Shown in pieces: positions 6,474-59,683 of a DNA stretch of 64,000 bases. A program made the translations under genes and the position numbers. Each line of letters opens with the position of its first letter. The stretch's first letter is position 1. This DNA is from Allobaculum sp. Allo2. GTDB lineage: Bacteria > Bacillota_I > Bacilli_A > Erysipelotrichales > Erysipelotrichaceae. Under the pieces are notes generated by a model, which made no database searches, was not told where the DNA came from, and worked only from the letters and a program-made list of their open reading frames with translations. The stretch is taken from NCBI RefSeq assembly GCF_022701175.1, contig NZ_CP078088.1:1922001-1986000 (forward strand), in the 5' to 3' direction.

Positions 6474-6560
6474 GCCCGCGTGGTGAAACTGGTAGACGCA
6501 GTGGACTCAAAATCCATCGACAGCGATGTCGTGCCGGTTCGAGTCCGGCCGTGGGCACCA
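6474..6560 (+). tRNA. tRNA-Leu (anticodon CAA)
   Basis: 87 bases with encoded CCA. The acceptor stem GCCCGCG pairs with CGTGGGC (one G-U). The anticodon arm reads GGACTCAAAATCC with CAA at positions 34-36. A long variable arm (CGACAGCGATGTCG) and the T-loop GGTTCGAGTCC are typical class II features. Its 3' end faces the McrBC-like island, a usual place for island insertion. Confidence 0.95.
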
Positions 6561-6724: not shown

Positions 6725-8928
6725 TTAGAGGTTCTTCGTTTTTTGCGCTGTATTTTCGTCGATCCCGTTTTCCGGCTCCAGTCCGGAAAAATCGACAGAG
6801 CGATCGACCGGCTCCTCGACCGGATTATCCTGTGCCGGATCCGAATCGAGCGAAGATGGGGTCATAGGCGGGAACGCTTCCTGATCTTCCGTGGCCTCCA
6901 TCGTTTCGAAGTCTTCCTCAAACGGATCTTCGGGGTCAGCCTCATCGGGATCAAACAAAGACGCCTGCGAGAGTAGTGCCAGCGAGGCCAGCGGCGATTG
7001 CGAATCCAGATTGGCGGGAAGCAGACTGTCGCTGTCCGAAACATTTAGCGGCCGCTCGTAAATCGCTCGGGCCTTTTCGATCTGATTGGTAAAGAGACGC
7101 TGCAAAGCTTCAAACTGATCGGCCTGCCGGGTTCCCGGATATTCGTAAAGCGAAATGATTTCGACCTGCGGAAAGATCGACTCCGAATCGCGGACCAGAT
7201 CGTAAATCGAGCGGGCGATGCGCAGACGAGTCTGTACTTCCGGATTTCGTCCATTGAATACGTAAAGACCGGTAATCTGATCGTCCGGATGAATCGGCGA
7301 AATGGAAAACAGATACTTGAAGATCAGCGGGAAAATTTTCTGCTTTTTGACATCGTGCGACGTGGAGTACTTGGCATCGCCGAGAATGTAGCGGGCGCCT
7401 TTCCACTTTGGACTTTCAATGCGGAATACGTAGTCCGGCGTGTAGTACGTTCCATAGGAAGATTCTTCACTGCCCTTGATCGGCATCGAAATCGATGTGG
7501 AGCGGCCAAGGCCGGTAATCGCGCGGTCTGGATGCTTGTGGTTGTAGATGACCGGCTGATAGTAAAGCGTGATTTTCAGATCGTCCTTCTGATAAATGTA
7601 GACGTTGTTGATCTCGGTGTTCTTATAAAACGTATCGCTTTCAAACGTGTAGTTGACCCGGTACGAACGGGTGCGCTGAAAGCCGCTGCTTTCGAAAAAC
7701 TCGCCCAGCTTCGTCAGAACGTACACTTCATACATTTCCGTAATCTGCAAAAACGTTCGAACGAAGCGAAGATCGCCGACACTCACGTTTTTCCTCGCGA
7801 AGCAGCGGCTGATGCTTTCGTAAATCAGACGGTATGCGGGCAGCTGACGGAACGCCGGGGTCAGCGTCGGCGCTTTTTCAGTTCAATGAGTCTGGCCGGA
7901 ATGGCACGGGAATACACCTGATACAGATAACGGAACCCCGCGAGCAGATCCCGCAGTTCGTTTTCTGTCGAATCAAACGAGTTTTTCATGACTTCGTACA
8001 GGAAGGCCGCAGAGTTCTGCATGTTCGTGATCGTCTTGTCATGAAGAACCGACCGGGCAGGAATCAGCTTTTTCTCCCTGGCCAGTTCGGGAATCATGGC
8101 TTCAATATCGTCGCAGACACCCTTGAGAAACGAGAGAGTGACCTGATTTTCGTACACATCCGTCGTACTGAGCGTCTGATCGACGTGCGAGAGATCGGGA
8201 ATATATGTGTTCATTCCAATACGCAGACCGACGCGGGAATCGCGAACACGATGCAGGGCTTCTGGATGTCCCAGCAAATACCGCACGCTGGCCTGCATGG
8301 ACTGGCTGCTGCCGTTCTGAGAGTGAAGCGCAGCTTTTCTTGGCCGCAGGCGAATGAGCCGCCAGGACCGTTCAAAAAGCGTCGCGGTCTGCTTGAGCTG
8401 ACGGATCTTGTCTTCAAGCGAATAGTAGCCGGGCCCTTTAGATCCTTCCCGGGTATCGTAGTCTTCCCTGGTTCCGTAAAAGAGCATCGGATTGTGACGG
8501 GCAATATAGGCGCCCATGGAATTGACGGAATAGTTTTCGTCCGTCAGCGGCGTGATGACTTCGATGTAGTCGGAGTAAAACATCTGAGCCGGTCCGCTGG
8601 CGTAAGTCACCCGGATGGTAAAGCGCGCAAAGCCAAAGGCATCGGCGAAAATCGATTTCGACCGGCCGCCGGGCGCGAAGTAGAGACGGTTGGTATTGGC
8701 GTAGTAGGTGGCACTGATCGGATAGTGGTTCAGCTGAACTTCCACATGCCGTATGTAGCCGGCACGCGGAACGCTGAGCTGCGCCGAATACGATCCCGTG
8801 GCATACACCTGGGCTTTCTGCGCTTTTAACAAATAGGAGAGCGGCAGTACTTCATCGGCCGGATGCAGCGGAACTTCGATCAGTTCCGCCCGGTAGTCGT
8901 CATAAAGCCGCAGTACGCTTTCGGACAT
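6725..8928 (-). CDS. DUF2357 / PD-(D/E)XK nuclease, McrC-like partner of the AAA+ ATPase (one apparent frameshift)
   Basis: About 734 residues after repair. The N-terminal ~350 residues are a beta-rich domain, with SYSAQLSVPRAGYIRHV, of the DUF2357 type. The C-terminal third holds a PD-(D/E)XK core: TPDYVFRIE, then about 20 residues on, YILGDAKYS, giving the PD and D-x-K catalytic signature, preceded by a helix (MYEVYVLTKLGEFF) typical of these nucleases. An acidic low-complexity tail follows. The frame breaks at the T5 run 7874-7878; one base rejoins IELKK to APTLTPAFRQL. The ATG at 8928 overlaps the ATPase stop as TGATG, so the pair is translationally coupled. By analogy to McrBC it would cut nucleic acid once the ATPase has recognised its target. 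The target is unknown. Confidence 0.7.
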
Positions 8929-11523
8929 CAGCTGAAGAACTGATAGAACTGCATGGAACCGTCTCCTTTTTCCATGATTTCCTTCAGTTTTCTGCCGCAC
9001 TTAATGAGTCCGCCTGTTTCGCAGACTTTTTCATTTTTCCAGAATGGTACGGAACTGGTGCGAAGACCCGTTGATTTTCGGAAGCAGACGCTGGAGTACG
9101 GCGTAGTCGAGCGCCATCGTGCCGGCATCACTATAGGCCTCGTCTTCATCGGGTACAAACCAGCGCAGAGCGGTCAGCACGTATTTGCGCAGCGCGCTTT
9201 CCGAACGGATGGAAACCGTAAGTCCGGCTTCCTTGAACAGAGCGGCCAGCGACTGATACACGTCTTCAAGCGCGCTTGGCAGCGTCTGGCTGTCTTCCTG
9301 CGGCAGGAACACTTCGTCAAGCTGTTCGTGCGTAATCAGCGAAGAGCGGAATTCGTCTTCCAGAAGCGGTCTGGCCGGCTTGAGCAGCAGACGCTTTTCC
9401 GGCATCGTAATGACCCAGGCACGGTCCAGCAGACGGCTGCTTAACGGTTCGGTCGTGTGGTCGGACTGAATGGCAGCCGCAAAATGCAGAGTCCTCGGAA
9501 TTTCAAACGTATACGTGTCGCCCAGCGCGATCGTACCGCGGATGGCGGCGTTTTCTTCCATGGACATGAAGTCGGCCCAGTAGTATTCCATGCTCGACAG
9601 GTTGGCATCGTCGAGAAGGACGAGCGCCGGGAGCGAATCCGAGCCGCTGTTTCCGCGGCTTTCCTGATTCAGAATGCTGAGCAGATCAAACAGACGCGGA
9701 TCCGCTTTTTCAAAGGAGCGGGTCAGCGAGTTGTAAAAGCCGATCAGATCGCGGCGGCTTGACCAGCCGCGTTCGACGCTGACGGAGACAAAACGGGAGC
9801 AGTACGGAAACTGCGGATGACTTTTTCAAGTTCTGCCGGCTGATCGAGGTGAAGCGCCTGCGCCGTAACGCGGCAGATCGACGTTTTTCCAGAGCCTGGC
9901 TGACCAGTAAAGATAGTCAGGAAGCCCTGGGTCAGGCAGATGAGAATGTTCAGAATTTCATTGCGGGAATATTCCGGACGGCTTTTCTGCATCGTGAACA
10001 CCAGATAGTCCACGAGCTGTTCCTTCGAAAGGAAGGATCGCGGCATGGCCGCAATGGCGCGGGACGCCTGCTGGTAAATTTCCAGCCGTCTGGCATTTTC
10101 CAGACGGGCGGTATGTTCCATGAAGCGTTCGGAAATCATATCGTCAAATGAGATTTCCAGCGTTTTCTGGCTGGAGCGTTCGAGCAGTTCATCGAGTTTT
10201 CCCTGCAGGCCTTCCATCTGTACGTTGAGATCGGCAATGCTTTTTCACGACGCGCAATTTCTTCCTGCAAGTAGGACGATCTTGCTTCCAGGTTGGCCAC
10301 ATCCTTGCCGATATTGGCCTGCCGCAGCGCTTCCTGGAATTCTTCTTCGGCTTTGGCTTTCATGGACTTGAGCTGATCGAGCTCTTCCTGATAGCGTTCG
10401 AGCTGCTGCTTTGGCTGCAGGATTTCCAGCTCATCGACGGCTTTCTGGAGTTCTTCCTTCTGCGCCTTCAGTTCGCTGTTTTTCTGCTTGAGCTGGCTTG
10501 TAAACGTGACGTATTCCGAATACGCAGGGAGCGCTTCGACAAATTCCTCATTTTCGAGCAGCTCATGAACCATATCCATATAGTCAGGATCGTCCTTGCG
10601 GGCCTTGAACATTTCCGGAATGAGCGAGGAAAGTTCATTAAAAAGTTCGCCGTTTTTGCGGACGATTCAAAGATCGCCTGAAGCCGCTTTACCCGCTCCG
10701 CAGCCAGTGCGGCCGGAATGTCCTTGCCGCTGATCAGCGAGTTCTGGTAACTGGCCAGCAGACTCGCAAACGCGGCGGGATCGACACCGATAGTTTTCGC
10801 CGTTTTTCCCTTGATGGATGCGGTAAAGTTTTCGATCAGTTCCTCATCGGAAATGGTGTCGGTCGGACACGGTTCGATGCCTTCGCCTTCGATGCGGACA
10901 TAGCCGCGCGTCACATCGATCTGTTCCAGCGTATGGATCCGATCCGCCAGAGAAGGCGAATACAGATAGCCGGAAATAATGGAGTTTTTCTGATCAAGCG
11001 AAGGATAGATCACCAGTTCATCGAGATCTTCGTCGTAACGGACCCGAAACGGACCGACGAGCGTATTTTCGATCGGACCTGGAATCATGACCCGCATATC
11101 TTCGTTGACGTCGCGGGTATTCAAAATCACCGTTGAATCTTTACGCCAGTCCCCTTCTACGGCTTCCTGGGGCAGCGCATAGTACCAGCCCACATCTTCC
11201 ATGCGAAGAATCGATCCGGAATACTGCTTGAACACATCGAGTTTCCAGGCGGAAGGATAGACGCTCCCATCGCTTTTCAAATTTGGAATGAGCTTATCGC
11301 TCTGAAAATCAATAATGACGTCGTCTCCGTCCTGAAACAGATCGTCTAAACGCATCGATGTCGAAGAGGAAAACAGATTCAGGTTGGGATACTGCGATCC
11401 CGGAAGAATCTTCTCCACATCTTCATCGCTCAAACGAATAAATTTGTCTTTTTCATAAATGTACGTCGGATAAAAATTCACATAAAATCCGCTGGTTCGA
11501 ATTTCTCCTACATAGCGCGGCAT
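8928..11523 (-). CDS. Coiled-coil AAA+ ATPase, McrB-like (several apparent frameshifts)
   Basis: About 866 residues after repair. Residues ~1-270 are a beta-rich domain I do not recognise. Residues ~310-430 are a heptad-rich coiled coil (LKQKNSELKAQKEEL, then KAKAEEEFQEA). The AAA+ core has Walker A GQPGSGKTS, Walker B LVLLDDANLSSMEYYW and a downstream IQSDHTTEPLSSRLLDRA segment resembling the NxDETTxxFSxxxxDRA region of McrB-like NTPases. Breaks near 10650, 10245, 9790 and in the two A5 runs around 9020-9038 are each fixed by one added base. The final repair extends the C-terminus to MQFYQFF and a stop at 8928-8930, which overlaps the nuclease start. An AAAGGA site precedes the ATG at 11523. 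Likely senses and translocates or remodels the target for the nuclease. Confidence 0.7.
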
Positions 11524-11808: not shown

Positions 11809-12309
11809 ATGCATTTTACATTTAAGGAAATCGAATACTACAAACCCGATGGAAAACCCGACATCTGTCTGGAATGCTTCAGCGTAATCGACCTGAATGT
11901 CTATGAACTACTTGAATTCAGCCGCGACAAAAACAAGTGCTACTACTGGGCTTTGAAAAGTCAGATTACCGGCGATGTGAAAGCCTACATCACTTCGGTC
12001 TACTACATCGACGGCGAAAACAGCCTTACCGGAAAGCCGACGTTTAAAATCGTGCACGGTTTTGAATACGAAGACCCGCGCGAATATCACTGTCCGCGCT
12101 CGGTGCTCGACCGGCTGACGCCGACCACCGATCCGCGTGCCCTGCAATGGCGGCGCAAAGCGCAGTACGCGCTCAATCAGGCAGCCCTGCTCAATCAGAA
12201 ATTTATCGAAGAACACCAGAAGGCGCAGCAGGAGCCGGATTTCTTGGTCCCTGCCCTGACTTCTTCTGTGACTGCGCTGATTGTTCAGGAAGAGAAGCTT
12301 CCCTTTTGA
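11809..12309 (+). CDS. Protein of unknown function, divergent from the ATPase-nuclease pair
   Basis: 166 residues; I do not recognise a family. It starts MHFTFKEIEYYKPDG with GAGG 7 bases upstream. The N-terminal ~110 residues are mixed and rich in aromatic residues (YYWALKSQITGDVKAYITSVYY). The last ~55 are helical and basic (WRRKAQYALNQAALLNQKF). There is no signal peptide or membrane segment. It shares an intergenic region with the AAA+ gene and is transcribed away from it, a usual place for an accessory or regulatory component. That link is inference. A small basic ORF follows 31 bases later. Confidence 0.6.
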   Translation: MHFTFKEIEYYKPDGKPDICLECFSVIDLNVYELLEFSRDKNKCYYWALKSQITGDVKAYITSVYYIDGENSLTGKPTFKIVHGFEYEDPREYHCPRSVLDRLTPTTDPRALQWRRKAQYALNQAALLNQKFIEEHQKAQQEPDFLVPALTSSVTALIVQEEKLPF

Positions 12310-12968: not shown

Positions 12969-14656
12969 CTAATTTTCTTCCCTTTCCACATACAGATCAG
13001 CCGGCAGCGTTTTCGAATATGGAAGCAGCCCCTCAACGATATGGTCCTGGAGTCCCTGTGTGGATAAAACATCCAGAACATAGACCAGATACTTTCTTGG
13101 ATCCAGGCCGTTGAGAATAGCGCTCTGCAGGATCGTGAAGCAGATGGCTGTGGCTTTGGCTCCTCTGAACGTATTGGAAAACAGGAAGTTCTTTCTGGCC
13201 ATTACGAATGGCTTCACCATTCGCTCGCACGCATTGTCATCGATTGGAGTTGCTCTGTCTTCTAAGAAAGCAGCTAATTCTTTTCGATTTTTGACGAAGT
13301 ATTCTGCAGCTTTCTTCAATTCTGACTTTGGGGCTGCGCCATCGTAGATTTTCCACATCAGGGCTTCGAGGGCTTCGAACACGGGACGGCTTTCCTTATC
13401 TCTGCGGATCTGAATCTGCTCAGGGGTTTCGTGCAGATTTTTGGCTGTCCGTTCGATTTTATAAAGCTTCTGGAACAGAGCGAGGGCTTTCAGGGTCAGG
13501 CTCAGGCCCAGGTTCTCTTCCTCCTCCAGAAACTTCGTTTTCTCTTCATCACTCAGTTTCAGATACGCTTTGTAATCCCTGCGTGTTTTGAGGTGATCCG
13601 TGAGCTTGCGTCTGGCATGCGCCATACAGAAGGCAAGCGTGGCGTCCTTATATATCCTGTGTACATCCGCTGCGTCACAGATGATTGTTCCGGAATAGTC
13701 CGGAGAAAGGAAATCCGCAAACGCCTGCTTATCTTTGCGCTCGGTGGCGTGATAAACGACCAGCTGGTGATTTTCCGCCCAGCTGGTACGGGTAACAATA
13801 ATGGTCCCCATCTTGTTGCCCCCGCTTTTCGAGCTTTCTAATACGCGTAAAGGCGTCTCATCCATATGAATGTGTCCGCTGTGTTTCAGATCTTTTACCA
13901 TGCGGTTGTATATCGACTCCAGATACTGTTCCGAAGTTTCTATTCCCCAGTTGCTCATTGTCTGTCTGGTCAGATAGAGCCCCTGCCTGTTGACATCCTG
14001 CTCCTGACGGTAGAACGGAAGGCCAAGCACGACTTTGTCGGAAATGATTTTCCCTGTCAGAGAAGGGGAAGCATAACTTCCTGGAAACAGCTTGGATGTT
14101 TCTGGCTTAGCCTGGAAAATATGTGTCTCTCCGTTTTCGTCTTCATACAAATAAACAGGGTAAATATCGCGCTGTACATACCACTGTGCAGGAACGTGAA
14201 CGATCTGGTCATAAACAACAGACTTAAGCTGGACACATTTATCTTTAACCGCTTCAAACTCTGGACCGGTCGGTTCGATGGTATTGGTGATCTTAGGAAG
14301 ATCATTGATATTGTCGTGAAGAGTTTTCTTTTGCCCTTTTGAGTCTGAACGATTTCCTCATCCTCCTGTTCTTGAGAAAGATTCTCAAGGACAGACGCTG
14401 CTTTAGAATTGGCATCAAGATGCCCTTCAGGAAGGTTCTCAAACAGAGAAGGCATTCCCTCCGAAGAAGTCCCAAACCGCTCATTCCTGCTCTTGATTCT
14501 CTTGATGAAGTTGTAATTGAACATCTCGGAAATCTGAGCGGTTATTTTGAGAAGTTCTTCTTTGGAAGCATCTTTGAACATCTCTAAAACATCTTCTTGT
14601 TTCACTCCATCCGGGCTTTGAATAAGACGGAGCAGGCTGGAGAAATCATTTTTCAT
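12969..14656 (-). CDS. tnpC: IS66 transposase TnpC (one apparent frameshift)
   Basis: About 562 residues after repair. The N-terminal part (MKNDFSSLLRLIQS onward) has a leucine-rich helical region and a basic NFIKRIKSRNERFG segment. The C-terminal part carries the DDE core: HMDETPLRVLE, then TIICDAADVHRIY, and the late acidic position in PIDDNACERMVK, all IS66 landmarks. The frame breaks at a T4 run near 14330 and one base joins KGKRK to TLHDNINDLPK. It catalyses cutting and joining of the element ends. Confidence 0.92.
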
Positions 14657-15307: not shown

Positions 15308-16083
15308 TCAGCCAAGGAGCGTATCAAGAATCATCATCAGTACAAAGCCGCCCGAAAAGTAGAGCGTTGGCAGATTGGAATGTTCGCCCTGCACCATTTC
15401 CGGGATGAGTTCTTCCACTACCACATACAGCATCGCCCCAGCCGCAAAGCTTAAAAACCACGGAAGCAGCGGAACGATCCAGCTTTGCATGGCCAGAGTA
15501 AGCCCAGTGGCCAGCGGTTCGACAGCGCCGGAGAGCGTGCCAAACCAGAACGCCTTCCAGCGCGAATAGCCGCTGCCGTGAAGCGGCATCGAAATGATCG
15601 CGCCTTCCGGAACGTTTTGGAGGGCAATGCCAAGGGACAGTGCCAGAACTGCGGAAAACGAGATCAGATTCGTGTTCAGCATGCCAGCCAGCGTCGCTCC
15701 GACCGCCATGCCTTCCGGAATGTTATGCAGAGTGACCGCCAGAAACAGTTTCGTACGCTTTTTCAGACTCGAATGCGGGCCTTCTTCTTCCAGCGATCCC
15801 GGATGAATGTGCGGCGTAATGGCATCGAGCACAAGCAGAAAAAGAATGCCCAGCAGAAAACCGCCGGCAGCCGGCAAAAGGCCATTCTGCCCATCGGTTC
15901 ACTCTGTTCCATGGCCGGAATCAGCAATGACCATACTGAAGCGGCAGTCATTACTCCGGCCGCAATGCCGGAAAAGCAGCGATTTACCAGCTGTGAGAGC
16001 GGTTTGCGCACAAAGAAAACAAATGCTGATCCAGCAGCAGTTCCAAGCAGCGGAATAAAGGCTGCCAGCAGAATACTGTTCAT
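15308..16083 (-). CDS. ZIP-family metal transporter (one apparent frameshift)
   Basis: About 258 residues after repair, with seven to eight hydrophobic segments. The diagnostic metal-site helices are HNIPEGMAVG in helix IV and LQNVPEGAII in helix V. A histidine-bearing loop (TPHIHPGS) sits before helix IV. This is the ZupT/GufA-like branch, importing zinc, iron or manganese. The frame breaks at the A4 run 15877-15880 and one base joins GRMAF to LPAAGGFLL. The TGA lies inside the IS66 target duplication, so the protein is intact although the downstream DNA has been replaced. The start is MNSILLAA at 16083 with GGAGG upstream. Confidence 0.88.
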
Positions 16084-16109
16084 TGCAGATCCTCCATTTA
16101 TTACTGAAG

Positions 16110-16133
16110 CCGGTTCTCCACAAAACCGGCTAA
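16110..16133 (-). other. Hairpin in the leader of the ZIP gene
   Basis: AGCCGGTT pairs with AACCGGCT about 30 bases upstream of the transporter start. It is too far from a T-run in the gene direction to be a terminator there. A metal-linked leader structure is possible but nothing else supports it. Confidence 0.3.
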
Positions 16134-16213
16134 AAAGAAAAGCGGCTCCGGCAGAAAAACTGCTTTCAGTCTATCAGCGAAAGGACATTTTACCGACGGA
16201 TATGAACGGCTCG

Positions 16214-16219
16214 TATAAT
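16214..16219 (+). promoter_or_regulatory. Candidate -10 box for the membrane protein gene
   Basis: TATAAT about 145 bases before the GTG at 16365, with a weak TTTACC 19 bases upstream. The leader between them holds nothing else recognisable. Confidence 0.3.
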
Positions 16220-16364
16220 ACATTTGCCTGTCGAATGGCAGACTATTGATGAGAAAAACTTCAGAATATGTTTAGACGGACATTATCGAAAGACGCCATG
16301 ATGGATGATAAGCTCAATTCATGAGAAATGGAATTTAAAATAAATTCCAGCAAGGAGAATCCCT

Positions 16365-16894
16365 GTGAAAACAATCCATCCTGCTCCACTGCCCCGCTCT
16401 TCTTCCCTGCGGCTTTACAATCTCATTTTCCCTCTGTTTTTCTTCTTTGTAGTTCCAATCACCTGGATCTGGCCGCTGTTCATTTTCGGCAATCTGGCAA
16501 TCGACTGCGCCGTTCTCCGCTTCTGTCTTAAGCGCTTCAATCCTCGAAACTGGAAGCAGGGCTTTAAAAAGACCTGGTGGAAGGTCTGGCTGCTTGGGTA
16601 TCTGGGGACGTTCTGGGCTGCGTGATTCTGTTTGCGATTGGTTTTATTCCCTATTCCGAAACCCTCTATCCCATCGAAATGGCGGTATACTACAACCCCT
16701 GGTCCCATCCGGTTGGACTGCTTCTGGTCTGCCTGACGATTATCCTGGCAGGATTTGCGCTCTATTTTCTCGATTCCCGCCTGGCTCTTCGAAAGAGCGG
16801 GCTTTCCGTCAAAGGCAGACGGAAAGCAGCTTTGATCATCTCCATAGCGACCGCACCTTATGTGCTGCTGATTCCGACGTCTCTTTTCTTCTGA
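16365..16894 (+). CDS. Membrane protein of unknown function (one apparent frameshift)
   Basis: About 176 residues after adding one base in the G4 run near 16604-16607, which joins LLGYLG to DVLGCVILFAIGF. It starts at a GTG with AAGGAG 7 bases upstream, opening MKTIHPAPLPRSSSLRLYN. Four hydrophobic segments are visible, at about residues 17-48, 70-95, 110-130 and 150-170, with a basic stretch LALRKSGLSVKGRRK between the last two. I do not recognise a family. It is monocistronic, with convergent guaB beyond. Confidence 0.6.
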
Positions 16895-17017
16895 TCAGTC
16901 AGCCGGCTTATCACTCAGTTTTTGCAGATTTCCGCCTGTGAAATCTGCATTTTAATTTTTCCCATTTAAAAGGCAGACCGCCGGGGTCTGCCTGTCCAGT
17001 TAACAAAATGATTGGAA

Positions 17018-18530
17018 TTACATCTGCCCGGCGTCGACTTTATCATCGCGGACGAGTACGTCATGGGCACCGCCCTCAGAAATCGATACAGCCGAAACCA
17101 GGGTAACTTTCGCGTTTTTCTGGAAATCCGGGATGTTGGTAAAGCCGCAGTTGCACATGGTGTGCTTGATCTTGGAAATCGTCAGACCGACGTTGTCCGC
17201 CAGTGCGCCGGCATATGGTACGTAGGAGTCAACGCCTTCGACAAAGGACATCTTGCCTTCGCCGCCGACATCATAGCGCTGCCAGTTGCGGGCACGGGCA
17301 CTTCCTTCGCCCCAGTACTCCTTCATGTAGTTTCCGTTTACGCTTACTACTTTGTTCGGCGCTTCCTTGAAACGGGCAAAGTAGCGGCCCAGCATAACGA
17401 AGTCTGCACCAAAGGCAAGGGCGAGCGTCATGTGGTAGTCCTGAACGATACCGCCATCGGAACAGATTGGAACGTAGATTCCAGTGTTTTCGAAATATTC
17501 ATCCCGCGCTTTGGCGACTTCGATTGTCGCGGTCGCCTGCCCGCGGCCGATGCCTTTCTGCTCGCGGGTGATGCAGATGGAACCGCCGCCGATACCGATT
17601 TTAACGAAGTCCGCACCGGCTTCAGCCAGAAAGCGGAATCCGTCGCCGTCAACAACGTTGCCGGCACCGACTTTAACGGTGTCGCCGTATTTTTCGCGAA
17701 TCCATTTGATCGTATCGGCCTGCCAGCAGGAATAGCCTTCGGAAGAGTCAATAACGAGGATGTCCGCACCGGCTTCTACAAGAGCAGGAACGCGGTCCTT
17801 GTAGTCGCGGGAGTTGATGCCTGCACCAACGAGGTAGCGTTTGTGCTCATCCAGAACTTCGTTTGGGTTTTCCTTGTGCTGTTCGTAGTCCTTACGGAAA
17901 ACGAACGCTTTCAGGCGACGATCCTTGTCTACGATCGGCAGCTGGTTCAGTTTCTTGTCCCAGATGATGTCGTTCGCTTCGCCAAGCGTGAGACCTTCAT
18001 CGCCGACGATCAGCTTGTCATAGGGCGTCATGACATCCTTGACTTTCGTGTTGTCGAGATCTACGCGGGTTTCGCGGAAATCACGGGAAGTCAGAATGCC
18101 GACGAGAACGCCGTCTTTTTGCCGTTTTCCGTAACGGCCATTGTGGAATGTCCGGTCTGCTGACGGATCTGGATTACTTTGCGCAGCGTATCATCAGGAG
18201 AAACGTTCGCATCGCTGCCGGTAAATCCAGCTTTGGTGGCCTTGACCTGACGAATCATCGCAGCCTGACTTTCAATCGGCTGAGAACCGAAAATAAAGGC
18301 GACACCGCCCTCGCGAGCCAGAGCGACCGCAAGATCCGGTCCGGACACCGCCTGCATGACCGCACTGGTCAGCGGGATGTTCAGGGAAAGCGCCGGCTTT
18401 TCCCCTTTTTAAATTTCACCAGCGGCGTTTTCAGGCTGACTTTATCCGGGGTATCTTCTGGTCCGGTATAGCCTGGAACGAGAAGGTATTCCGCAAAAGT
18501 GCGGGAAGGTTCGCTGAAAAATTTTGCCAT
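17018..18530 (-). CDS. guaB: Inosine-5'-monophosphate dehydrogenase, Tritrichomonas-type (two apparent frameshifts)
   Basis: About 504 residues after repair. It starts [12 protein letters not shown] with AGGAGG 6 bases upstream. Domains: N-terminal barrel strand block ([14 protein letters not shown]), a CBS pair (MTPYDKLIV region), then the catalytic barrel with the nucleophile loop [18 protein letters not shown] and [16 protein letters not shown], and the flap region [18 protein letters not shown]. It oxidises IMP to XMP with NAD, the committed step to GTP. The loop and flap follow the divergent form known from Tritrichomonas foetus and some bacteria, not the common GPGSICTTR form. Breaks at the T5 run near 18116-18120 and near 18410 are each fixed by one base. 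Confidence 0.92.
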
Positions 18531-39381: not shown

Positions 39382-40334
39382 CTATGCCGTTTTCATCTTG
39401 ATTTTGACAACGGCTTTCTTGTTGTCGGCCGGGATGTACTCGCCTGCCTTGCCTGCACCCTGCAGGGCTACGCCGTCAAAGTCTTCCGACTCGATGGTCC
39501 GCGCGGTGTTGATGCCGGTGAAGGCCTTGGCAATTCCGCCGACGTAGGCATAGCAGATCTCGCCGGTCTGGAACATGGAGTCCGGCACTTCCTCGATCAG
39601 GAAGCCTTTGAACTTCACGATGCCGTTTTCATCGATGTTCACGCTGCTGTTTTTGCTTGTCGTGGCCAGAGCGCTGTCCACGATCAGGTTGTACAGATCG
39701 CTGGTGACTTTGGCATAGCGCGTGCCGACTGCCTCGATGTTGGTGAAGTATTTCGAGAGCTCGTTGAACAGTGCTTTCGGATCCGAATCAGACAGAGTTG
39801 TTGCCGATGTGGTAATCGTCTTGCCGGCAGACTGGGAAATGAACTTGCCGTGAGCTTTGTTGAACATTTCCGTTTTGGCCAGAGCCTGAAGCTCAAGACG
39901 GTCGGCAATGGCCTGTTCCAGGCTGTTGTTGACGGTGTGTCGGTCGATTCCCTCATGAAAGTTCCATCCCCATGTGTATTCGACATCCTCGTCTTCATAC
40001 GTAATTTCCGTACGGTTTCCAAAGCGGTTCGAGTTTCCTGTGCCAGTCTTGAATGCTTTGGTATCCGTCTTGTCGTAGCCGGTACCAATCGCCACCGGAA
40101 TATCACAGGTCTTTACGCTGAATGCTTTCTTGTTGAAAGCGACGCCATCAAGCGCCTCCAGGCCGCCGACAAAGAAGTCATTGAAGTATGACTTTTGGCA
40201 AAGACTGCGGGCAGCAGCTCTTTAAACTGCATGCCGTAAGTGCGAACGCCTTTTTCATTGTTTGCGCCTGTCGGTGTGGTTGTCGTACTAGTTCCATCAC
40301 CTTCCGCAAAGCGCTGAAGTTTAAATTCGTTCAT
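39382..40334 (-). CDS. Major capsid protein, with an LQRFA N-terminal tag (one apparent frameshift)
   Basis: About 317 residues. It opens MNEFKLQRFAEG, followed by a Thr-rich linker. The body has FNDFFVGGLEALDGVAF after repair near 40190, WGWNFHEGIDRHTVNN (the backbone helix region), LADRLELQALAKTEMFN-like helices and LLIEEVPDSMFQTGEICYAY-type strands, with KAVVKIKMKTA at the end. HK97-fold capsid related to SPP1-type phages, by position and pattern. The short tag before the linker is a candidate cleavage site for the Prp-like protease. Confidence 0.82.
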
Positions 40335-43246: not shown

Positions 43247-45172
43247 CTAATATGCAACTCCATTCATAAATTCAGTGTAGTAAACGTTCTGGCCAATTTC
43301 TCGAAGTTCATCCAATAACTCTTCATATCCATTTGGTGCATTAGACTTTAAATGATTTGGACGAGAATAGTCGAACCAGGGCTTCAGCAATTCGTAGAGC
43401 TCATCTTCTTTCGCCTTAGCAACCACGTATTCATCTTTTTCAAGTAATTTTCTTTCTTCGAATTTGCTCATATCGTCCTCCACTAAGTAAAAGGTCCTCA
43501 ATTCAGTATATACTTCATCATACTTTCCCAAACCAAGTGTTTTTGCAGAATAAGCACTAATATTTTCTAAATCGTACTTTGGGAGATATTTTAAGACCTT
43601 TTCTTCAGCATATCGATGCCGATAGGAAAAATATTCGTTTCTGGTTTCTTGAGTAATCTCACAGATCTTCTCCCGATATTCTTTAGCATCTTTCCAGTGA
43701 AACAGCTCGTGAATCATCGTCACGTCCAGGTTATGCGGCATTAAGGATTTGTCATTAGGATCAAGCTCAAAGGCAGTTTTATTCGTCAGATAATAACCTA
43801 GTTTTAAAACGTCCTGTACCGGATCGTAAGCCGCCAATGCTCCTGTACTAAGTGTTGTATCGTTGACAATGATTATTTTTGTGTTCCCCAAATCGCTTAG
43901 GCCGTGAGCCTTCATGGCCGTCTGAACCGCTTTATTGACCTCATGTACCTGTCGCGATTTAACATGAACGCCTTCTTCTACATACCAGTTTTTCGTTCTT
44001 CAATTGGATAGGCTTTTCGCTCTTCTCGAAAATTCGTTGTAAACGTTTCAGGCTGTTCTGCATTTAAACTAACAGTCTTATATTCCTGCTCCTCCTGATG
44101 CGCTTTGAATTCAATTTCATGGTTCTGCGCTTCCCACTCTTCCCACGTCAGTGCGTCCTCGTCGTCCTCATGCTCTTCCATATAGTCGCACCATTCATCG
44201 AACGCAGCCTCATCAAAGTCCTTATCGCCGTCTTCGTCTCTGGCTTCATACGGGGCAATGGAGCAGCGGCAGTTTGGATGCATTGGCGGAGCGTTCTCGC
44301 CGGATGCCAGTCGTGGCAGCGGGAAGTGCTCCCCGTTGATTGCCTGGCATTCTTTGCAGCAGTCTGGATTGGCAATGATTTGGAACTCATCAAATCCACA
44401 GGCCTTAAACGAATCCAGGGATGCCTGAACTCTCACCCGGCTCAGCTCCGTCGAAATGAGCCTCTGGCACTCTCGGGTTGTTTTCCCCGTTGCCTTTTTA
44501 GCTCTCTGGTGAACGGTGCCGCACCCTTTCCCAGAATCAAACAGTCCTGAAGCGCTTTGTTCAGGACTTTTTTAGTTTCGCCTGCTGGGTGCCCCAGATC
44601 CGATCGGAGAAGGTCGCTCCATGGAAGGACGCGTGAGCGATGGTGCTTACGTGCTTCAGGTTGGTAAGTACCGTATCGCCCAGAATGCCGGCCTGTCTTG
44701 TGTAGGTCTGCAGGATGCGGTCATTGAGAGCGTCCTCAACGACGCTGCAGGCTTTGCGCTGGGCGTTGGCAATCCGCAGGCTGATCTGGCGCTTGAGCAT
44801 ATCCAGACGGGCAATCTTCATGGCGGTGTTGTAGCGCTTCATGTCCTGATCGGCTTGCTGGGTGAAGTAGCTTTTGGCTGCGTCATGCGCCCACGTTCCC
44901 GCCGCCATGTCTTTTGCTGCATCTTCACAGTAGCGTTTGGCCAGACGGAAATAGTAGCGGATATCGGTCCGATCCAGATACTGCTTCGCCAGGGCATAGG
45001 TCAGGCCGTTTTCATCAGCGTACTTCTGATAGAACACCGCAATCTGTTCGCTGATTTCATCGTTCATCGTCTGATAGATGTCCTGCAGCTTCTGGTGCCA
45101 CTGCACATTGTTTGCCTGGCACTCCTTCGTCCAGTCGTCTTCCCGCTCCTGCCAGTACTTACTGGAGGCCAT
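43247..45172 (-). CDS. MuF-type minor head protein fused to an HExxH domain (three apparent frameshifts)
   Basis: About 642 residues after repair. Residues ~1-300 are SPP1 gp7-like: helical front (LAKRYCEDAAKDMAAGTWAHD), then RECQRLISTELSRVR (MuF R-x4-TE block), and the metal-like site CCKECQAINGEHFPLPRL and MHPNCRCSIAPYE. An acidic linker follows (~360-410). One A added to the A4 run near 43980 carries the frame through NWYVEEGVHVKSRQVHEV into ~250 more residues with VTMIHELFHWKDAKEYREK, an HExxH zinc-site motif. The other breaks are near 44563 and 44535. It overlaps the portal stop by 14 bases. MuF proteins with enzymatic tails are known as phage-carried polymorphic toxins; whether this is one is inference. 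Confidence 0.7.
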
Positions 45173-46547
45173 AACCGCCCTCCGTCTCTTCCAGGCTGTC
45201 TTCCTCTTCCGGGGTCACAGACGGGTGAGAATCGAAGTCCATGAGCGGCTGAGGCTCCTGTTCCTGTTCGATTTTCTCAAGCTCTGCCTTCGGATCCGAC
45301 ACGATCGAGAGTAATGAGAGCTGTGTTTCATGGGAGACGATGCCGGACAGCTGTGCAGCTGTCTGTGCCTCTTCCAGGCGATTCTTGGGAAGGTTGCGGC
45401 TTGTTGTTACCTGCAGTTCCTTCCATGTGTTCTCATCGCTGACGTTGGTCTTGAGAGTCGCCCAGATCTTGTAGCGCTTGCGCAGGCTCTTCTCAATCTT
45501 GCGATCAAAGCCGGATGCCAGATTGCTCATCGCCTGCAGTTTGTAAGCCAGGGCGGTTCCGCTTGAGGCATTGCCAAAGCTTTCATCGCTGATGTTGGCC
45601 ACCATCGAGATCTGGTAGATCTGCCGATCCAGACGGTCCAGCAGATTTTCCTGCGTGGAGTCAGCTGTCGGCTTGGCCATGAAATCAACCTGCGTGCCCG
45701 TCGTATCGCCATAGATTGGCAGGTTGATGATCCGGTTCTCACGGATCCGTTTCACTTCTTCATCGTCGATATCCACGCCGATCAGCTTCATGTAAGCTTC
45801 GGCGAAGGCGTCAACGTCATTGGCTTTTTCACCGATTGCTCGGTTATAGGCTTCGATCAGGCCGGTGACGTTCTCATACAGACCAAGGCGCTGACGGTTC
45901 ATCAGATACTCGACAACCGGAATCAGTCCGTATGGATTGTCAAGCGTTTCAATGAACTTTCCTTTGTCGAAGCGAATGATCTGATCTCTGGTCAGCACTT
46001 CGCCAAACAGTTCGCCCTGGCTGCCTTCAATCTCATGAACGGCATAGCGAACCGCAAACAAGGCTCTGTTCCGGACTGTATCGTCGTAAACGATAAAAAG
46101 CTCCTTCGGCGTGCAGACTGTCATTCTGGTCTTTGCTTCCTCGTCCTGGTAGAGGTACTCGAAAGCATGGCCATAAATGCAGACATCCTGAAAGAGCTCG
46201 TATTCATGATCAGACAGTTCATTTTCGTTCTGAAATTCGCGCATGGCTTCGGCTACCGTATCATCTGGATGGCTTTCCTTGATTGGAATGCCGTAGGCGT
46301 ATCCCAGAAACGTTTCTGTGATGTAGCGCGGGTAATTGATCGCCAGCCGGTTATCGGGCTTCCAGTCCGGCTTATCTGGCTGCTGATAAATGCTGTGGAA
46401 GCCTTTGTACATTTCTTCAAGGTACTTGTAGCGCTGCATCCGGCTGGCATGCTTGTCGATGAACCGCTTGACCAGCGCATAGTCAAGGTTCACATCTGTC
46501 TCGCAAATCAGAGGTTCCGGAAGCTGATATGGTCTTTTGGTACTCAT
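45159..46547 (-). CDS. Portal protein (SPP1 gp6-like)
   Basis: 462 residues, intact. Recognisable blocks: YLEEMYKGFHSIYQQ, NRLAINYPRYITETFLGYAYG, FGNASSGTALAYKLQAMSNLA (portal stem/wing) and the polar C-terminal tail ending EEDSLEETEGGYG. It forms the dodecameric ring through which DNA is packed. Separated by 0-1 bases from the terminase. Confidence 0.92.
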   Translation of the reverse strand: MSTKRPYQLPEPLICETDVNLDYALVKRFIDKHASRMQRYKYLEEMYKGFHSIYQQPDKPDWKPDNRLAINYPRYITETFLGYAYGIPIKESHPDDTVAEAMREFQNENELSDHEYELFQDVCIYGHAFEYLYQDEEAKTRMTVCTPKELFIVYDDTVRNRALFAVRYAVHEIEGSQGELFGEVLTRDQIIRFDKGKFIETLDNPYGLIPVVEYLMNRQRLGLYENVTGLIEAYNRAIGEKANDVDAFAEAYMKLIGVDIDDEEVKRIRENRIINLPIYGDTTGTQVDFMAKPTADSTQENLLDRLDRQIYQISMVANISDESFGNASSGTALAYKLQAMSNLASGFDRKIEKSLRKRYKIWATLKTNVSDENTWKELQVTTSRNLPKNRLEEAQTAAQLSGIVSHETQLSLLSIVSDPKAELEKIEQEQEPQPLMDFDSHPSVTPEEEDSLEETEGGYGLQ

Positions 46548-52585: not shown

Positions 52586-54279
52586 CTATTCTAACCTACC
52601 AATTGATTGCTGTATGCACTCTTGTCTGCCATCCACTCTGCGGCGCTGGCGTGCGGCTTTAGATCTCATAGAGAGCGGAACATAGTCGGCAGGCCTTCCA
52701 AAGCTGTAAGGTACCCGCCAGCCGTTTTGCGCGATCTCATCGATCAATTTGGAAGCCTCACTGAACTGCCATTCGCCGACACGCTGGAATCCTTTGCGTT
52801 CCAACATCCGAATCTGCTTTGGTGTCGTGAGCCCTGCTTCTCTGCGCTTCTGAAGCTTGTCCAGAATGAGACGCGCTTTTCCGCATGTCTCTACCTCATC
52901 CGGGTTGATGCCCCATTTTTCCAAAGATGCCTTTTGCTTGTCGGTCATCGGCTTGAGCTCCCATGCAAATGTCTCTTCGTAGCTGGCCAAATCATTTGAA
53001 CTGATGGACATCTCCCACTGAAGCGGGTCCACAAATTTTGATTTTCTGGTTTTCAGCTCTCGCAGATGCTCAGCCAGAGCCGCTTCACGCTGCCGAACTA
53101 CGTCAGACTCTGCCTCAACCTCAAGCTCCTGAATGTCTAAACCTTCGATGAGCATGGGATCGTCCGCTTTGTCTTCAAGGATCTCAGTCATCCTTTTCTG
53201 AACCTTTGCATCATCTGAGATCAGATGGGCAGGATGGCAGAGCTCCATGCGTTCCGAGTGCCAAAGGAAATCAAGAAGCAGCACATACTCTTTACAAGGT
53301 GCCAGACGGGTGCCACGGCCTACGATCTGGGTATAGAGTGCGCGGATCTTGGTCGGTCTGAGGCAGATCACGCAGTCAATTGATGGACAGTCAAAGCCCT
53401 CCGTCAGCAGCATCGAGTTGCACAGGACGTTGGTTTTGCCTTCCTCAAAATCTCTAAGCTTACGCTGTCTGGCCTCCGGGAAATCAGTCCCGGAAATCTC
53501 TTCCGCGTGGAACCCTTTGCGGTTAAGAATCTCTTTGAACTTTCTGCTGGTTGCGATCAGAGGCAGAAAAGCGATGGTTTTCCGGTCTCTGCAGTACTCC
53601 GTCATTTTGTCGGCGATGGCCTCAAGGTACGGATCCAGCGCCTCTCAAGCTCTCCGGCTGAAAAATCGCCACTGCTTTGAGATACGCCACTGATGTCGAT
53701 GTCGAGTGGGATCGTTAATGCTCTAATTTTTGAGAGATATCCATCGCGGATCCCCTGAGCGATGGAATATTCAAAAGCGATCGAATCAAAGACTTTTCCA
53801 AGATTTCGCTTGTCGCCTCTGTCTGGCGTAGCGGTTACGCCCAGAATTTTTGCCTGATCGAAGTGCTCTAACACTCTTTGATAGCCGTCAGAGAGGGTAT
53901 GATGGGCCTCATCGATTACGATGGTGTCAAAGTAATTTCTGCGAAACTTTGAAAGTCTTTTGGGAGATTGAAGTGTCTGGACAGAGCCGACAACTACGGG
54001 CGTTGCCGGCTCATCCAGACAGCTGAACTCTGCCTTTTCAAGGGCTGTATCGAGTCCAGTCGTTTTCTTGAGCTTGTCGGATGCTTGATCCAGCAGCTCT
54101 TTTCTGTGAGCAAGAATCAGGACCTTTTCGCCGTTTTCTACTAACCGTTTGATTACGTTGCAGAAAACGATAGTTTTGCCTAGGCCAGTAGCCAGGACTA
54201 AAAGCGTTTTGCGATGGCCCTGCTCCCACTCTTGGAAAATCGATTCAACCGCTTGCTTTTGATACGGTCTCAGCTCCAT
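52586..54279 (-). CDS. SF2 DEAD/DEAH-box helicase (one apparent frameshift)
   Basis: About 565 residues after repair. Motif I LVLATGLGKTIV, motif II DEAH (TIVIDEAHHTL), motif III VTATPDRGDK, and motif VI QIVGRGTRLAP, with YQKQAVESIFQEW as the Q-like lead. The C-terminal part is RecG/UvsW-like only in outline. The break near 53640 needs one base. Part of the replication/recombination block. Confidence 0.9.
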
Positions 54280-55944: not shown

Positions 55945-57225
55945 TCCATGCGGGATGAGCTGGCGTCGGCTGAGCTTTAGCGACTGTCACCACTGTTCCA
56001 TCTTCGATGATGATTGAGCACTCATCCCCGGTTGAAACTCGTGTGGCGATCGCCTGCAGACCCTCAGCTTCAAGCCACTGGCCAAACTCTTCCATGGTCT
56101 GCTGATCCATCTGTTCGAGCTTGTCCAGGAGGACGAAGCCGCAGTTTGGATTCATTGCTCTGCAGATTGCTGCTGAGACTTTCAGCTGATCCGAGCCGCT
56201 CATGTTGTCCCAGCGCCGCCCTTTGTAGAGAATCTCGCCGTTTTCAACAGTCAGATCCGGCAGCGGAAGCGATGCAGATCTAAGCAGATCTAGTCGCTTT
56301 GCCCGGATCTGATCAATGTCATTGGACAGCGTCTGATACTGAAGGACGAGATCTTCGGCTTCTTTGAGCGCTTCCGATCTGCTGCGATTTGTGCGGATCT
56401 GCTGATTCTTTGAGTCAATTTCACGGAGGTTTTTCTCCAGTTCTTCCGTACTCTCGTCATACAGATCGAGCGCGTCACGTCTGGCCATTTCCAAGTCAGA
56501 AAGAAGTTTTGAGAGATCCGCCTTTGCTCGTTCAAGCGCCTGCTCTGCATCAGCAACGTTCTGCTGATACCTAGGGAGCAGCTGCTCGTACTTGCTTACG
56601 TTCTGGCGCTTGCGTGCGTTGTCCGCATTCTTAAGCAGGATCTCCTGCTGACGCTGAATCAGATCGGCGGCGCTGAGCTCAACTTCTCCTACTCCAGGGA
56701 ACTGCGGCATTTCTTCAGCGTGAGCTTTTTGGCTCGTGCCTGACGGCCGACCCATGTCCGCTGATCAAATAGTTCCTTTTCTTCTTTTTCCATCTGTGTA
56801 AGCTGATCGCCTACGCCGATAATGGAAAGCAGATACTCCGCTTTTTCTTTGGAAGTAGCTTCCATGAAGCGCGGAATGTTCAGCGCCATTTCTCCGATAA
56901 GAGAGTCCAAGATTTTCTGGCCAGATTTCTGACCAGTCGGATCTGTGACCTTGAGGTCAGAATTTTTGCCTTTGCGCTCAACGATCAAGCCGTTGCTGAG
57001 CGTGATCTTGATTTCTGGATCTTGTACGGATCCAGCGCGATGGGGATCTGAAGGTTTCAGCTTGTTGCCGCCAAGCCCCCAGGCGATTGCATCAAGAACT
57101 GATGTTTTGCCCTGATTGTTTCGCCCGCCGATGATGGTCAGTCCATTCGGTGACGGCTCAAGCTGTACTGCTTTGATCCGCTTAACGTTTTCTGCTTCAA
57201 AGCTGGTGATTTTTACTGTCATCAC
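55922..57225 (-). CDS. SMC/SbcC-like AAA ATPase (one apparent frameshift)
   Basis: About 434 residues after repair. Walker A GGRNNQGKTSVLDAI in the N-terminal half, a Q-loop region, then a coiled coil (~180-310: LLKNADNARKRQNVSKYEQLL, LSKLLSDLEMARRD) and the C-terminal signature GSDQLKVSAAICRAM with Walker B CGFVLLDKLEQMD. The break near 56750 needs one base. A DNA-end-processing or recombination helper that heads the early operon. Confidence 0.85.
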
Positions 57226-58462: not shown

Positions 58463-59541
58463 ATGGCAATTCAAAAGAGAAGTTCAAAGGCAAGATGCGT
58501 TATCGCTTCAGGACGTACTACGATACTCCAGACGGTATCCATCGCCAGAAAAACTCAAAGTGGTACGATTCAAAGAAAGAAGCTGAAGCAGCAGAAAGAG
58601 AATTTTTAAGTCAGCCAGTCCAGGCTGAAAAGAAGGGCAAGACTTTCTCTAAATTGATGGATGCGTGGATCCTGGAAGGTGGGAGAGATAATACTGCCGC
58701 AACCAGAGATGATAAGCGCCGGATCCTGACTCTGTATTGCCAGTCAATCATGGATAAGAACGTTTTCACTATTACACCAGCGGACATTCGAAGCATTTTG
58801 GAAGATGAGCACTTCATCACTCTTTCGAGCTACCGGAAGAACAAGCTCTACACCGATCTGAACGGATGCCTGGAGTACGGCTGTGTCCATTGGGGGTTGC
58901 CAAGGAACCCGTTAAAGGGATTTCCACGATTCAAGGAAACAACGAAAGAAAAGCTGAAAGAAGTTGAGATTCTTGATCGTCACCAGTTCGCGGAGTTTCT
59001 TGGAGCAATTCCGGATAATCATCAGATCTACCGCGATCTGTTCTTCTGGCTGTACTGGACAGGTATGAGAGCGAACGAAGCGATGTCTCTGACGTTCTCA
59101 GATATCCAGCGAGGCCGCGCTAAAGTCTGGCGGCAGTGGGATAAAGATACAAGCGAATTCAAGCAGCTGAAGACCAAAGGAAGTGTGCGGGCTGTTCAGC
59201 TCGACGATGATCTTCTCGATGTCGTCGATCGGATCCGGGAACATTACGAAACCTTCGTACACTTTTCCGAAGACTGGTTCATCTTCGGCGGACCTCGTCA
59301 GCTTGCTTACACAACTGTACAGCGAATCAAGAACAAAGCGCTTGATGATGCAGGCCTGCCAAGAGTCAAGATTCACAGTTTCAGACACTCTCATGCGTCC
59401 AATCTGATCGACGCTGGAGTTCCGCTTTTCAAGATTTCGAAGCGTCTTGGGCACTCTTCAGTGTCGATGACAACGGACATTTATGGGCACCTTTTGCATG
59501 AAGAAGACGACGATATCATGAACGCCCTCAAGTTCAAATAA
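58463..59541 (+). CDS. int: Tyrosine-recombinase integrase (one apparent frameshift near the start)
   Basis: About 359 residues. The true start is probably MAIQKRSSKGKMRYRF at 58463 after one G is added to a GG run, since the evident ATG at 58495 falls inside the arm-binding domain. The SAM-like core-binding domain follows. Catalytic set: Arg in WTGMRANEAM, HSFRHSHAS (H-x-x-R), LGHSSVSMTTDIYGHL (His and Tyr nucleophile). It faces tRNA-Pro, the likely attachment site. Confidence 0.92.
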
Positions 59542-59606: not shown

Positions 59607-59683
59607 TGGTCAGGATGGCGGGATTTGAACCCGCGCTCTCTTGGTCCCGAACCAAGCACTTTACCAAACTAAGCTACATCCTG
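59607..59683 (-). tRNA. tRNA-Pro (anticodon CGG)
   Basis: 77 bases with discriminator A and encoded CCA. Acceptor CAGGATG / CATCCTG, anticodon loop TTCGGGA (CGG), T-loop GGTTCAAATCC. The 3' end faces the integrase, as expected for a tRNA-targeting phage; the core attachment site is probably within the 3' part. Confidence 0.93.

What the first reader, a model, noticed from the sequence alone, without database searches (positions are those of the whole stretch)
6725..11523. Coiled-coil AAA+ ATPase and DUF2357/PD-(D/E)XK nuclease as a coupled two-gene conflict system beside tRNA-Leu
The ATPase has Walker A, Walker B, a long heptad-rich segment and an SDHTTE...DRA element; the nuclease has PD and D-x-K motifs in the right order. 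Their stop and start overlap as TGATG. The layout (McrB-like sensor plus McrC-like effector) follows type IV restriction logic, and the coiled coil recalls the CoCoNuT-type McrBC variants, but the N-terminal ~270 residues of the ATPase are unrecognised and could set the specificity. tRNA-Leu on its flank fits an island. The gene pair reads as fully functional once single missing bases are added.
Basis: partly seen in the sequence, partly recalled or inferred. Interest (0 to 1): 0.75.

Follow-up and report, generated by a model that had tools for sequence, protein, structure and literature searches.

The report
McrBC-like motor and nuclease pair
This is a two-gene bacterial defence-type machine, a distant relative of the McrBC enzyme that cuts foreign DNA, in which the two contacting catalytic residues of the motor have both been replaced, a pairing not seen in any of its sampled relatives.

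Summary
A coiled-coil AAA+ gene and a PD-(D/E)XK nuclease gene lie head to tail at 6725-11523 (-) with a TGATG overlap. They are read in seven frame pieces because this assembly is indel-rich: the neighbouring housekeeping gene IMPDH is broken in the same way. Intact pairs exist in two species of the genus. The pair is a divergent McrB/McrC. The nuclease carries PDDEXK_7, its family carries DUF2357, and a homologue's predicted structure matches McrC best of the PDB chains compared. The ATPase belongs to a well-supported clade of two-gene McrBC relatives, mostly coiled-coil, on plasmids, prophages and chromosomes, whose other members carry the NxD signature of the branch that contains CoCoNuTs. 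The tRNA-Leu claim needs correction: the pair sits beside tRNA-Leu(CAA) in most of the genus, with no att repeat, so it is not a recent island. The unexpected point is that all three species with a readable ATPase replace Walker B Glu by Asp and sensor-1 Asn by Gln. In E. coli McrB those two side chains touch and position the catalytic water. About 30 distinct relatives keep Glu and Asn. I rate it a new variant of a known kind.

The parts
8928..11523 (-). McrB-like coiled-coil AAA+ protein gene (read in five frame pieces in this assembly)
   Evidence: tblastn with the intact 884-aa G001 orthologue; PDC-M26A hit on the AAA pieces; tree
11194..11523 (-). N-terminal OB-fold-like domain, residues 1-110 (tentative)
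   Evidence: AlphaFold2 model, mean pLDDT 81.8; best VIA match exosome OB/S1 subunit 8r1o_I Z 6.3, 3.0 A over 81 residues; Lin28 cold shock domain Z 4.3
10858..11193 (-). second, beta-rich domain with the invariant GP of a 'GPF' motif (residues ~111-222); fold not identified
   Evidence: (G157 P158 invariant)
10149..10525 (-). coiled-coil segment
   Evidence: heptad scoring
9882..9905 (-). Walker A GQPGSGKT
   Evidence: alignment
9592..9624 (-). Walker B LVLLDDANLSS, with Asp in place of the catalytic Glu
9448..9471 (-). signature/sensor-1 loop IQSDHTTE, with Gln in place of Asn
6725..8928 (-). McrC-like nuclease gene (two frame pieces)
   Evidence: PDDEXK_7 E=3e-5; tblastn with G001; DUF2357 in family members; AlphaFold2 model of homologue L038 closest to McrC
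8146..8160 (-). DVYEN motif in the DUF2357-like region, nearly invariant Glu-Asn in the family
7364..7438 (-). PD ... D-A-K nuclease active-site motif
   Evidence: P, D, D and K invariant among the ten homologues of A5; coordinates
8926..8930 (-). TGATG stop/start overlap of the two genes
   Evidence: one-base overlap also in G001, G002 and E. coli mcrB/mcrC
6474..6560 (+). tRNA-Leu(CAA) flanking the pair
   Evidence: ARAGORN; also beside the pair in G002 and G004

Best explanation
A two-gene modification- or structure-dependent restriction machine of the McrBC kind. The first protein forms an AAA+ nucleotide-driven ring that carries, in front of the motor, a beta-rich sensor region (probably an OB-fold nucleic-acid binder plus a second domain) on a long coiled coil. 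The second protein docks through its DUF2357 (McrC) region onto the ring, stimulates nucleotide turnover, and cuts nucleic acid with its PD-(D/E)XK domain. The pair belongs with the NxD branch of McrBC that includes the coiled-coil 'CoCoNuT' systems, and lies closest in architecture to the two-gene Type I forms. In this genus the two residues that jointly hold the catalytic water have changed together (Walker B Glu to Asp, sensor-1 Asn to Gln), most simply a length-compensating swap that retunes hydrolysis. Shown here: gene pair, domains, family, conservation, the substitutions. Inferred from family knowledge: ring assembly, stimulation by the partner, cleavage, anti-phage role. Unknown: what is recognised, and whether GTP or ATP is used.
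For: The pair is found as neighbours in same-genus genomes, plasmids of Acinetobacter, Klebsiella and Citrobacter and a Chlorohelix plasmid, Lachnospiraceae, Alteromonas and prophage/viral contigs. The nuclease hits PDDEXK_7, its family hits DUF2357, and McrC chains are the top three structural matches of the L038 model (Z 9.8, 9.3, 9.2). The ATPase profile aligns to E. coli McrB (E 5e-7). The AAA-domain tree gives a clade of 15 two-gene forms with support 97/100. Relatives carry NxD, the signature of the CoCoNuT-containing branch (PMC11090510). The Asn-Glu contact and its catalytic role in McrB are from PMC6624300 and PMC7680126. The pair is under purifying constraint (dN 0.28-0.68; dS 1.3-2.7, near saturation).
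Against: No experiment exists for this lineage. The genus lacks the signature Asn that defines McrB GTPases and the Walker B Glu, both reported essential in E. coli or Thermococcus McrB when mutated to Ala, so the motor may not hydrolyse nucleotide in the known way. Full-length Foldseek on both models gave no E below 0.001. The structural match of the nuclease has high rmsd (11.7-16.6 A, domain arrangement). Conserved chromosomal position in the genus would also fit a domesticated role.
Confidence: 0.75

Rival explanations
1. In this genus the motor is a nucleotide-binding switch that no longer hydrolyses (or hydrolyses very slowly); the double substitution disables turnover and the complex works by binding-triggered nuclease release.
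For: Both water-positioning residues are altered in all three species; Ala mutants of either abolish GTPase activity in McrB (PMC7680126); Walker A and the rest of the AAA core stay intact.
Against: Asp and Gln keep the acid and the amide; Walker B motifs D[D/E] occur in AAA+ proteins generally (PMC7680126). The length changes are opposite, which suggests compensation rather than loss.
Confidence: 0.2
2. A domesticated, non-defence role: the pair was fixed in the genus ancestor and now serves a cell process, as reported for the McrB-family protein PcdA in Staphylococcus aureus.
For: Conserved position beside tRNA-Leu in G000, G002, G004 and the same chromosomal neighbourhood in G001; precedent PMC10602043 (title and abstract).
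Against: Much faster divergence (35-64% identity by piece) than the neighbouring IMPDH (90-94%); close relatives travel on prophages and plasmids; the nuclease active site is retained; not found in G003, a 66% complete genome.
Confidence: 0.12
3. A sub-case of the best explanation, not exclusive with it: an RNA-targeting CoCoNuT, in which the OB-like sensor recognises RNA and the complex cuts RNA as a suicidal last line of defence.
For: NxD-branch family with coiled coil, OB-like N-terminal domain (best match an RNA exosome OB subunit), and a McrC partner with an extra N-terminal beta domain, as described for Type I CoCoNuT (PMC11090510).
Against: OB matches are weak (Z 6.3 or less). OB folds also bind DNA. 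No HEPN or other RNase was noticed next to the pair, and PD-(D/E)XK domains are usually DNases.
Confidence: 0.3
4. A decayed pseudogene pair.
For: Five frame breaks in the window copy.
Against: A similar density of breaks in the housekeeping gene IMPDH and in ZIP; no internal stops in any piece; intact orthologues in G001 and G002; dN well below dS.
Confidence: 0.04

Closest known systems
E. coli K-12 / Thermococcus McrBC (Type IV restriction)
   Same: Two genes with one-base overlap (E. coli); AAA+ motor followed by DUF2357 + PD-(D/E)XK partner; nuclease ends in the same D-A-K-Y motif; McrC is the best structural match
   Different: No 5-methylcytosine (DUF3578/ADAM) domain seen; long coiled coil and OB-like N terminus instead; NxD-type loop rather than NxxD, and in this genus QxD with Walker B DD; partner has an extra N-terminal beta domain
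Type I CoCoNuT systems (PMC11090510), above all the two-gene I-A and I-C
   Same: NxD-branch motor with coiled coil N-terminal to the AAA domain; CnuB + CnuC only; OB-like N terminus (tentative); partner with N-terminal beta domain, DUF2357 and intact PD-(D/E)XK
   Different: No helical insert between Walker B and the signature loop (spacing 37-39 versus 112 in the I-A-like Klebsiella pair L019/L020); signature Asn replaced; no typed Type I-B or I-C reference could be placed in the tree
PADLOC PDC-M26 (candidate system)
   Same: ATPase scores against PDC-M26A (E 7e-22 for G001)
   Different: PDC-M26A/B models fit the I-A-like pair (1107 and 1427 bits for L019); the focal nuclease does not hit PDC-M26B

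Membership tests
McrBC (Type IV restriction), broad family | AAA+ motor gene followed by DUF2357-containing McrC partner | tested here: met
   Gene order in window, G001, G002 and distant loci; DUF2357 above cut-off in L038, sub-threshold in G001, undetected in the window piece
McrBC (Type IV restriction), broad family | PD-(D/E)XK nuclease with intact PD and D-x-K | tested here: met
   PDDEXK_7 E 3e-5 on the window protein; invariant P, D, D and K among the A5 homologues
McrBC (Type IV restriction), broad family | McrC fold of the partner | tested here: met
   Homologue L038 model: 7vsr_M Z 9.8 (11.7 A, 259 aligned), 6hz4_M Z 9.3, 6ut6_G Z 9.2; done on L038, not on the window protein
McrB GTPase (strict) | Nx(xx)D signature loop with Asn and Walker B Glu | tested here: not met
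   Window, G001 and G002 have QxD and DD; all other relatives whose motifs were read have NxD and DE
CoCoNuT Type I | NxD-branch GTPase domain by phylogeny | tested here: inconclusive
   Focal sequences nest in a 15-member clade whose other members carry NxD; no typed Type I-B/I-C reference was available
CoCoNuT Type I | long coiled coil fused N-terminal to the AAA domain | tested here: met
CoCoNuT Type I | cold-shock/OB domain at the N terminus of CnuB | tested here: inconclusive
   OB-like model, Z 6.3 at best
CoCoNuT Type I | Ig-like beta-sandwich at the N terminus of CnuC | tested here: inconclusive
   Residues 1-113 of the L038 model are nearly all beta, but that part was not matched separately
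CoCoNuT Type I-A | helical insert between Walker B and signature loop | tested here: not met
   spacing 37-39 residues versus 112 in L019/L020
CoCoNuT / McrBC function | anti-phage or anti-plasmid activity | not testable with these tools
   no experiment

The most novel reading that the evidence does not exclude
A lineage of McrB-like motors in which the two contacting catalytic residues have swapped lengths together (Walker B Glu to Asp, sensor-1 Asn to Gln), giving a working but re-engineered active site, possibly with changed nucleotide choice or partner dependence, in place of the asparagine thought to be strictly required in this family.
Probability: 0.45. Interest if true: 0.55.

Novelty: new variant of a known kind. 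Interest (0 to 1): 0.42.

Why it matters
The pair shows that a two-gene coiled-coil McrBC lineage, missed by the candidate-system model PDC-M26 on its nuclease side, is spread over plasmids, prophages and chromosomes of several phyla. The genus-specific double substitution is a natural experiment on how McrB-type motors position the catalytic water: it predicts that the single changes harm and the double change restores turnover, which is directly testable in relatives that keep Glu and Asn.

Tried and rejected
A genome-contig scan with the window nuclease alone found no relative; an alignment of ATPases was needed. A DUF2357 family search of the own genome found nothing, but its controls were silent too, so it shows no absence. 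The nuclease alignment was not conserved enough for a pattern scan. Recent-island reading: no second copy of the tRNA-Leu 3' end in the window, and the same arrangement in other species, so rejected as a recent event. Pseudogene reading: rejected because IMPDH is broken in the same way. Foldseek against PDB and viral models gave no significant hit for the N-terminal model, and the VIA list shows mostly OB-like matches at Z 6.3 or below, so the second domain (residues ~111-222) stays unidentified; no YTH/EVE match was listed, which is not evidence of absence. Literature search for PDC-M26 found nothing.

Full report
What is there. The two genes lie on the minus strand, ATPase 11523-8928 and nuclease 8928-6725, sharing one base in TGATG. 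Reading the six frames and aligning to the intact same-genus proteins shows the ATPase in five frame pieces and the nuclease in two, with no stop inside any piece. The breaks belong to the assembly: IMPDH, 94% identical to its G001 orthologue, is in three frames and the ZIP-type transporter in two in the same window, and the 2.73 Mb one-contig genome is scored 58% complete. G001 has the pair intact (884 and 654 aa), as does G002 (869 and 767 aa), each with a one-base overlap. dN is 0.28-0.68 against dS of 1.3-2.7 (near saturation, so the ratios are rough), which is purifying constraint; IMPDH is far slower at dN 0.04-0.07.

What the proteins are. The ATPase has an N-terminal region, a coiled coil (residues 348-476 in G001; E. 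coli McrB has none) and an AAA+ core. PADLOC's PDC-M26A hits the core. The profile of its closest relatives aligns to E. coli McrB over the AAA domain (E 5e-7). The nuclease hits PDDEXK_7 (E 3e-5 in the window, 4e-6 in G001). DUF2357 is found in 6 of 10 family members, best E 6e-10, but not in the window protein itself. An AlphaFold2 model of the homologue L038 (mean pLDDT 80) has McrC as its three best structural matches, Z 9.2-9.8 across residues 115-601, although the rmsd is large because the domain arrangement differs. Residues 1-113 of that model are an additional, nearly all-beta region. P, D, D and K of the nuclease active site are invariant among the ten homologues of A5 and present in the window at 7438 and 7381.

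The N-terminal region. Folded alone from the window's own sequence with ten homologues (mean pLDDT 81.8), residues 1-110 form a small barrel. Its best matches are OB-fold/S1 subunits of RNA exosomes (Z 6.3, 3.0 A over 81 residues), followed among others by the Lin28 cold shock domain and ssDNA-binding OB folds (Z 4-5). All are below 8, so an OB fold is a reasonable but unproven reading. Residues ~111-222 are a second beta-rich domain with an invariant Gly-Pro ('GPF') that I could not identify.

Relatives. Scans of plasmids, genomes and viral contigs found the pair side by side in Acinetobacter, Klebsiella and Citrobacter plasmids, Chlorohelix, Lachnospiraceae, Alteromonas, a proteobacterial MAG and several prophage-like contigs. 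L035 has tRNA-Leu(CAA) and what looks like an integrase directly upstream of the pair; L038 sits behind a gene that looks like a tape measure (my reading of the sequence, not searched). In a tree of AAA domains, 15 two-gene forms, mostly coiled-coil, make a clade with support 97/100, and the focal genus groups with L030, L038 and L023 (100/99). The I-A-like Klebsiella pair, an EVE fusion and methyltransferase-neighboured forms fall outside.

The active site. In every other relative whose motifs could be read (about 30 distinct sequences) Walker B reads D-E and the signature loop N-x-D. The window, G001 and G002 alone read D-D and Q-x-D. In E. coli McrB the Asn333 side chain contacts the Walker B Glu280, and the two act on the catalytic water; Ala mutants of the equivalent residues abolish turnover in Thermococcus McrB (PMC6624300, PMC7680126). 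The CoCoNuT census calls the NxD motif strictly conserved in that branch and the Asn strictly required (PMC11090510). The two changes are opposite in side-chain length, so compensation is the simplest reading. They occur on one branch, and the nested position of the genus shows they are derived; with one branch the coupling itself cannot be tested statistically. Whether turnover survives is unknown.

The locus. Window order is FhuB/FhuD-like genes, sulfite-reductase-like gene, tRNA-Leu(CAA), pair, then an IS66-like transposase, ZIP and IMPDH. G001 has the same order, with about 13.5 kb including transposase-like genes between tRNA-Leu and the nuclease. G002 has IMPDH, pair, tRNA-Leu; a G004 contig has the nuclease end next to tRNA-Leu. 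In G003 (66% complete) the pair was not found and the neighbour of IMPDH differs. No second copy of the tRNA 3' end is in the window. The pair is therefore an old resident beside tRNA-Leu, though it may originally have arrived as an island.

How it most likely works. By homology: the motor assembles as a ring, the McrC-like partner docks and stimulates hydrolysis, and the partner's nuclease cuts when the sensor domains find a target. Shown here are the parts, their order, their conservation and the family. Inferred are assembly, stimulation, cleavage and defence. Target (DNA or RNA, modified or not) and nucleotide are open.

Verdict. Novelty: new variant of a known kind. Interest 0.42.

Noticed in passing
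window 38000-59700: A prophage: major head protein 39382-40095, minor head protein 43978-44436, portal 45159-46547, helicase 52586-53605, SbcC-like ATPase piece 56689-57225, integrase 58495-59541 next to tRNA-Pro(CGG) 59607-59683. Several of its genes look split into frames too.
   Followed up: partly
window 12969-14656: IS66-like transposase (by eye), itself in two frames, between the pair and the ZIP transporter; an unassigned 166-aa ORF at 11809-12309 (no PHROG hit) sits between them.
   Followed up: partly
window 15308-18530: ZIP-type transporter and IMPDH split into two and three frames while 60-94% identical to intact G001 proteins: assembly-wide indels.
   Followed up: yes
L016 1226-7392 and L015 1108-3829: More distant AAA relatives with membrane-anchored-looking N termini; in L016 a signal-peptidase-like gene follows, resembling the 'CoCoPALM' systems named in PMC11090510.
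   Followed up: no
L035 1906-7938: A pair of this family directly behind tRNA-Leu(CAA) and an integrase-like gene: the same tRNA species as in the window, in an unrelated host. Possibly coincidence, possibly a shared kind of insertion site.
   Followed up: partly
L013 5735-13131 and L018 1-8743: Related McrBC pairs next to DNA methyltransferase genes; L018's motor carries an EVE domain.
   Followed up: no
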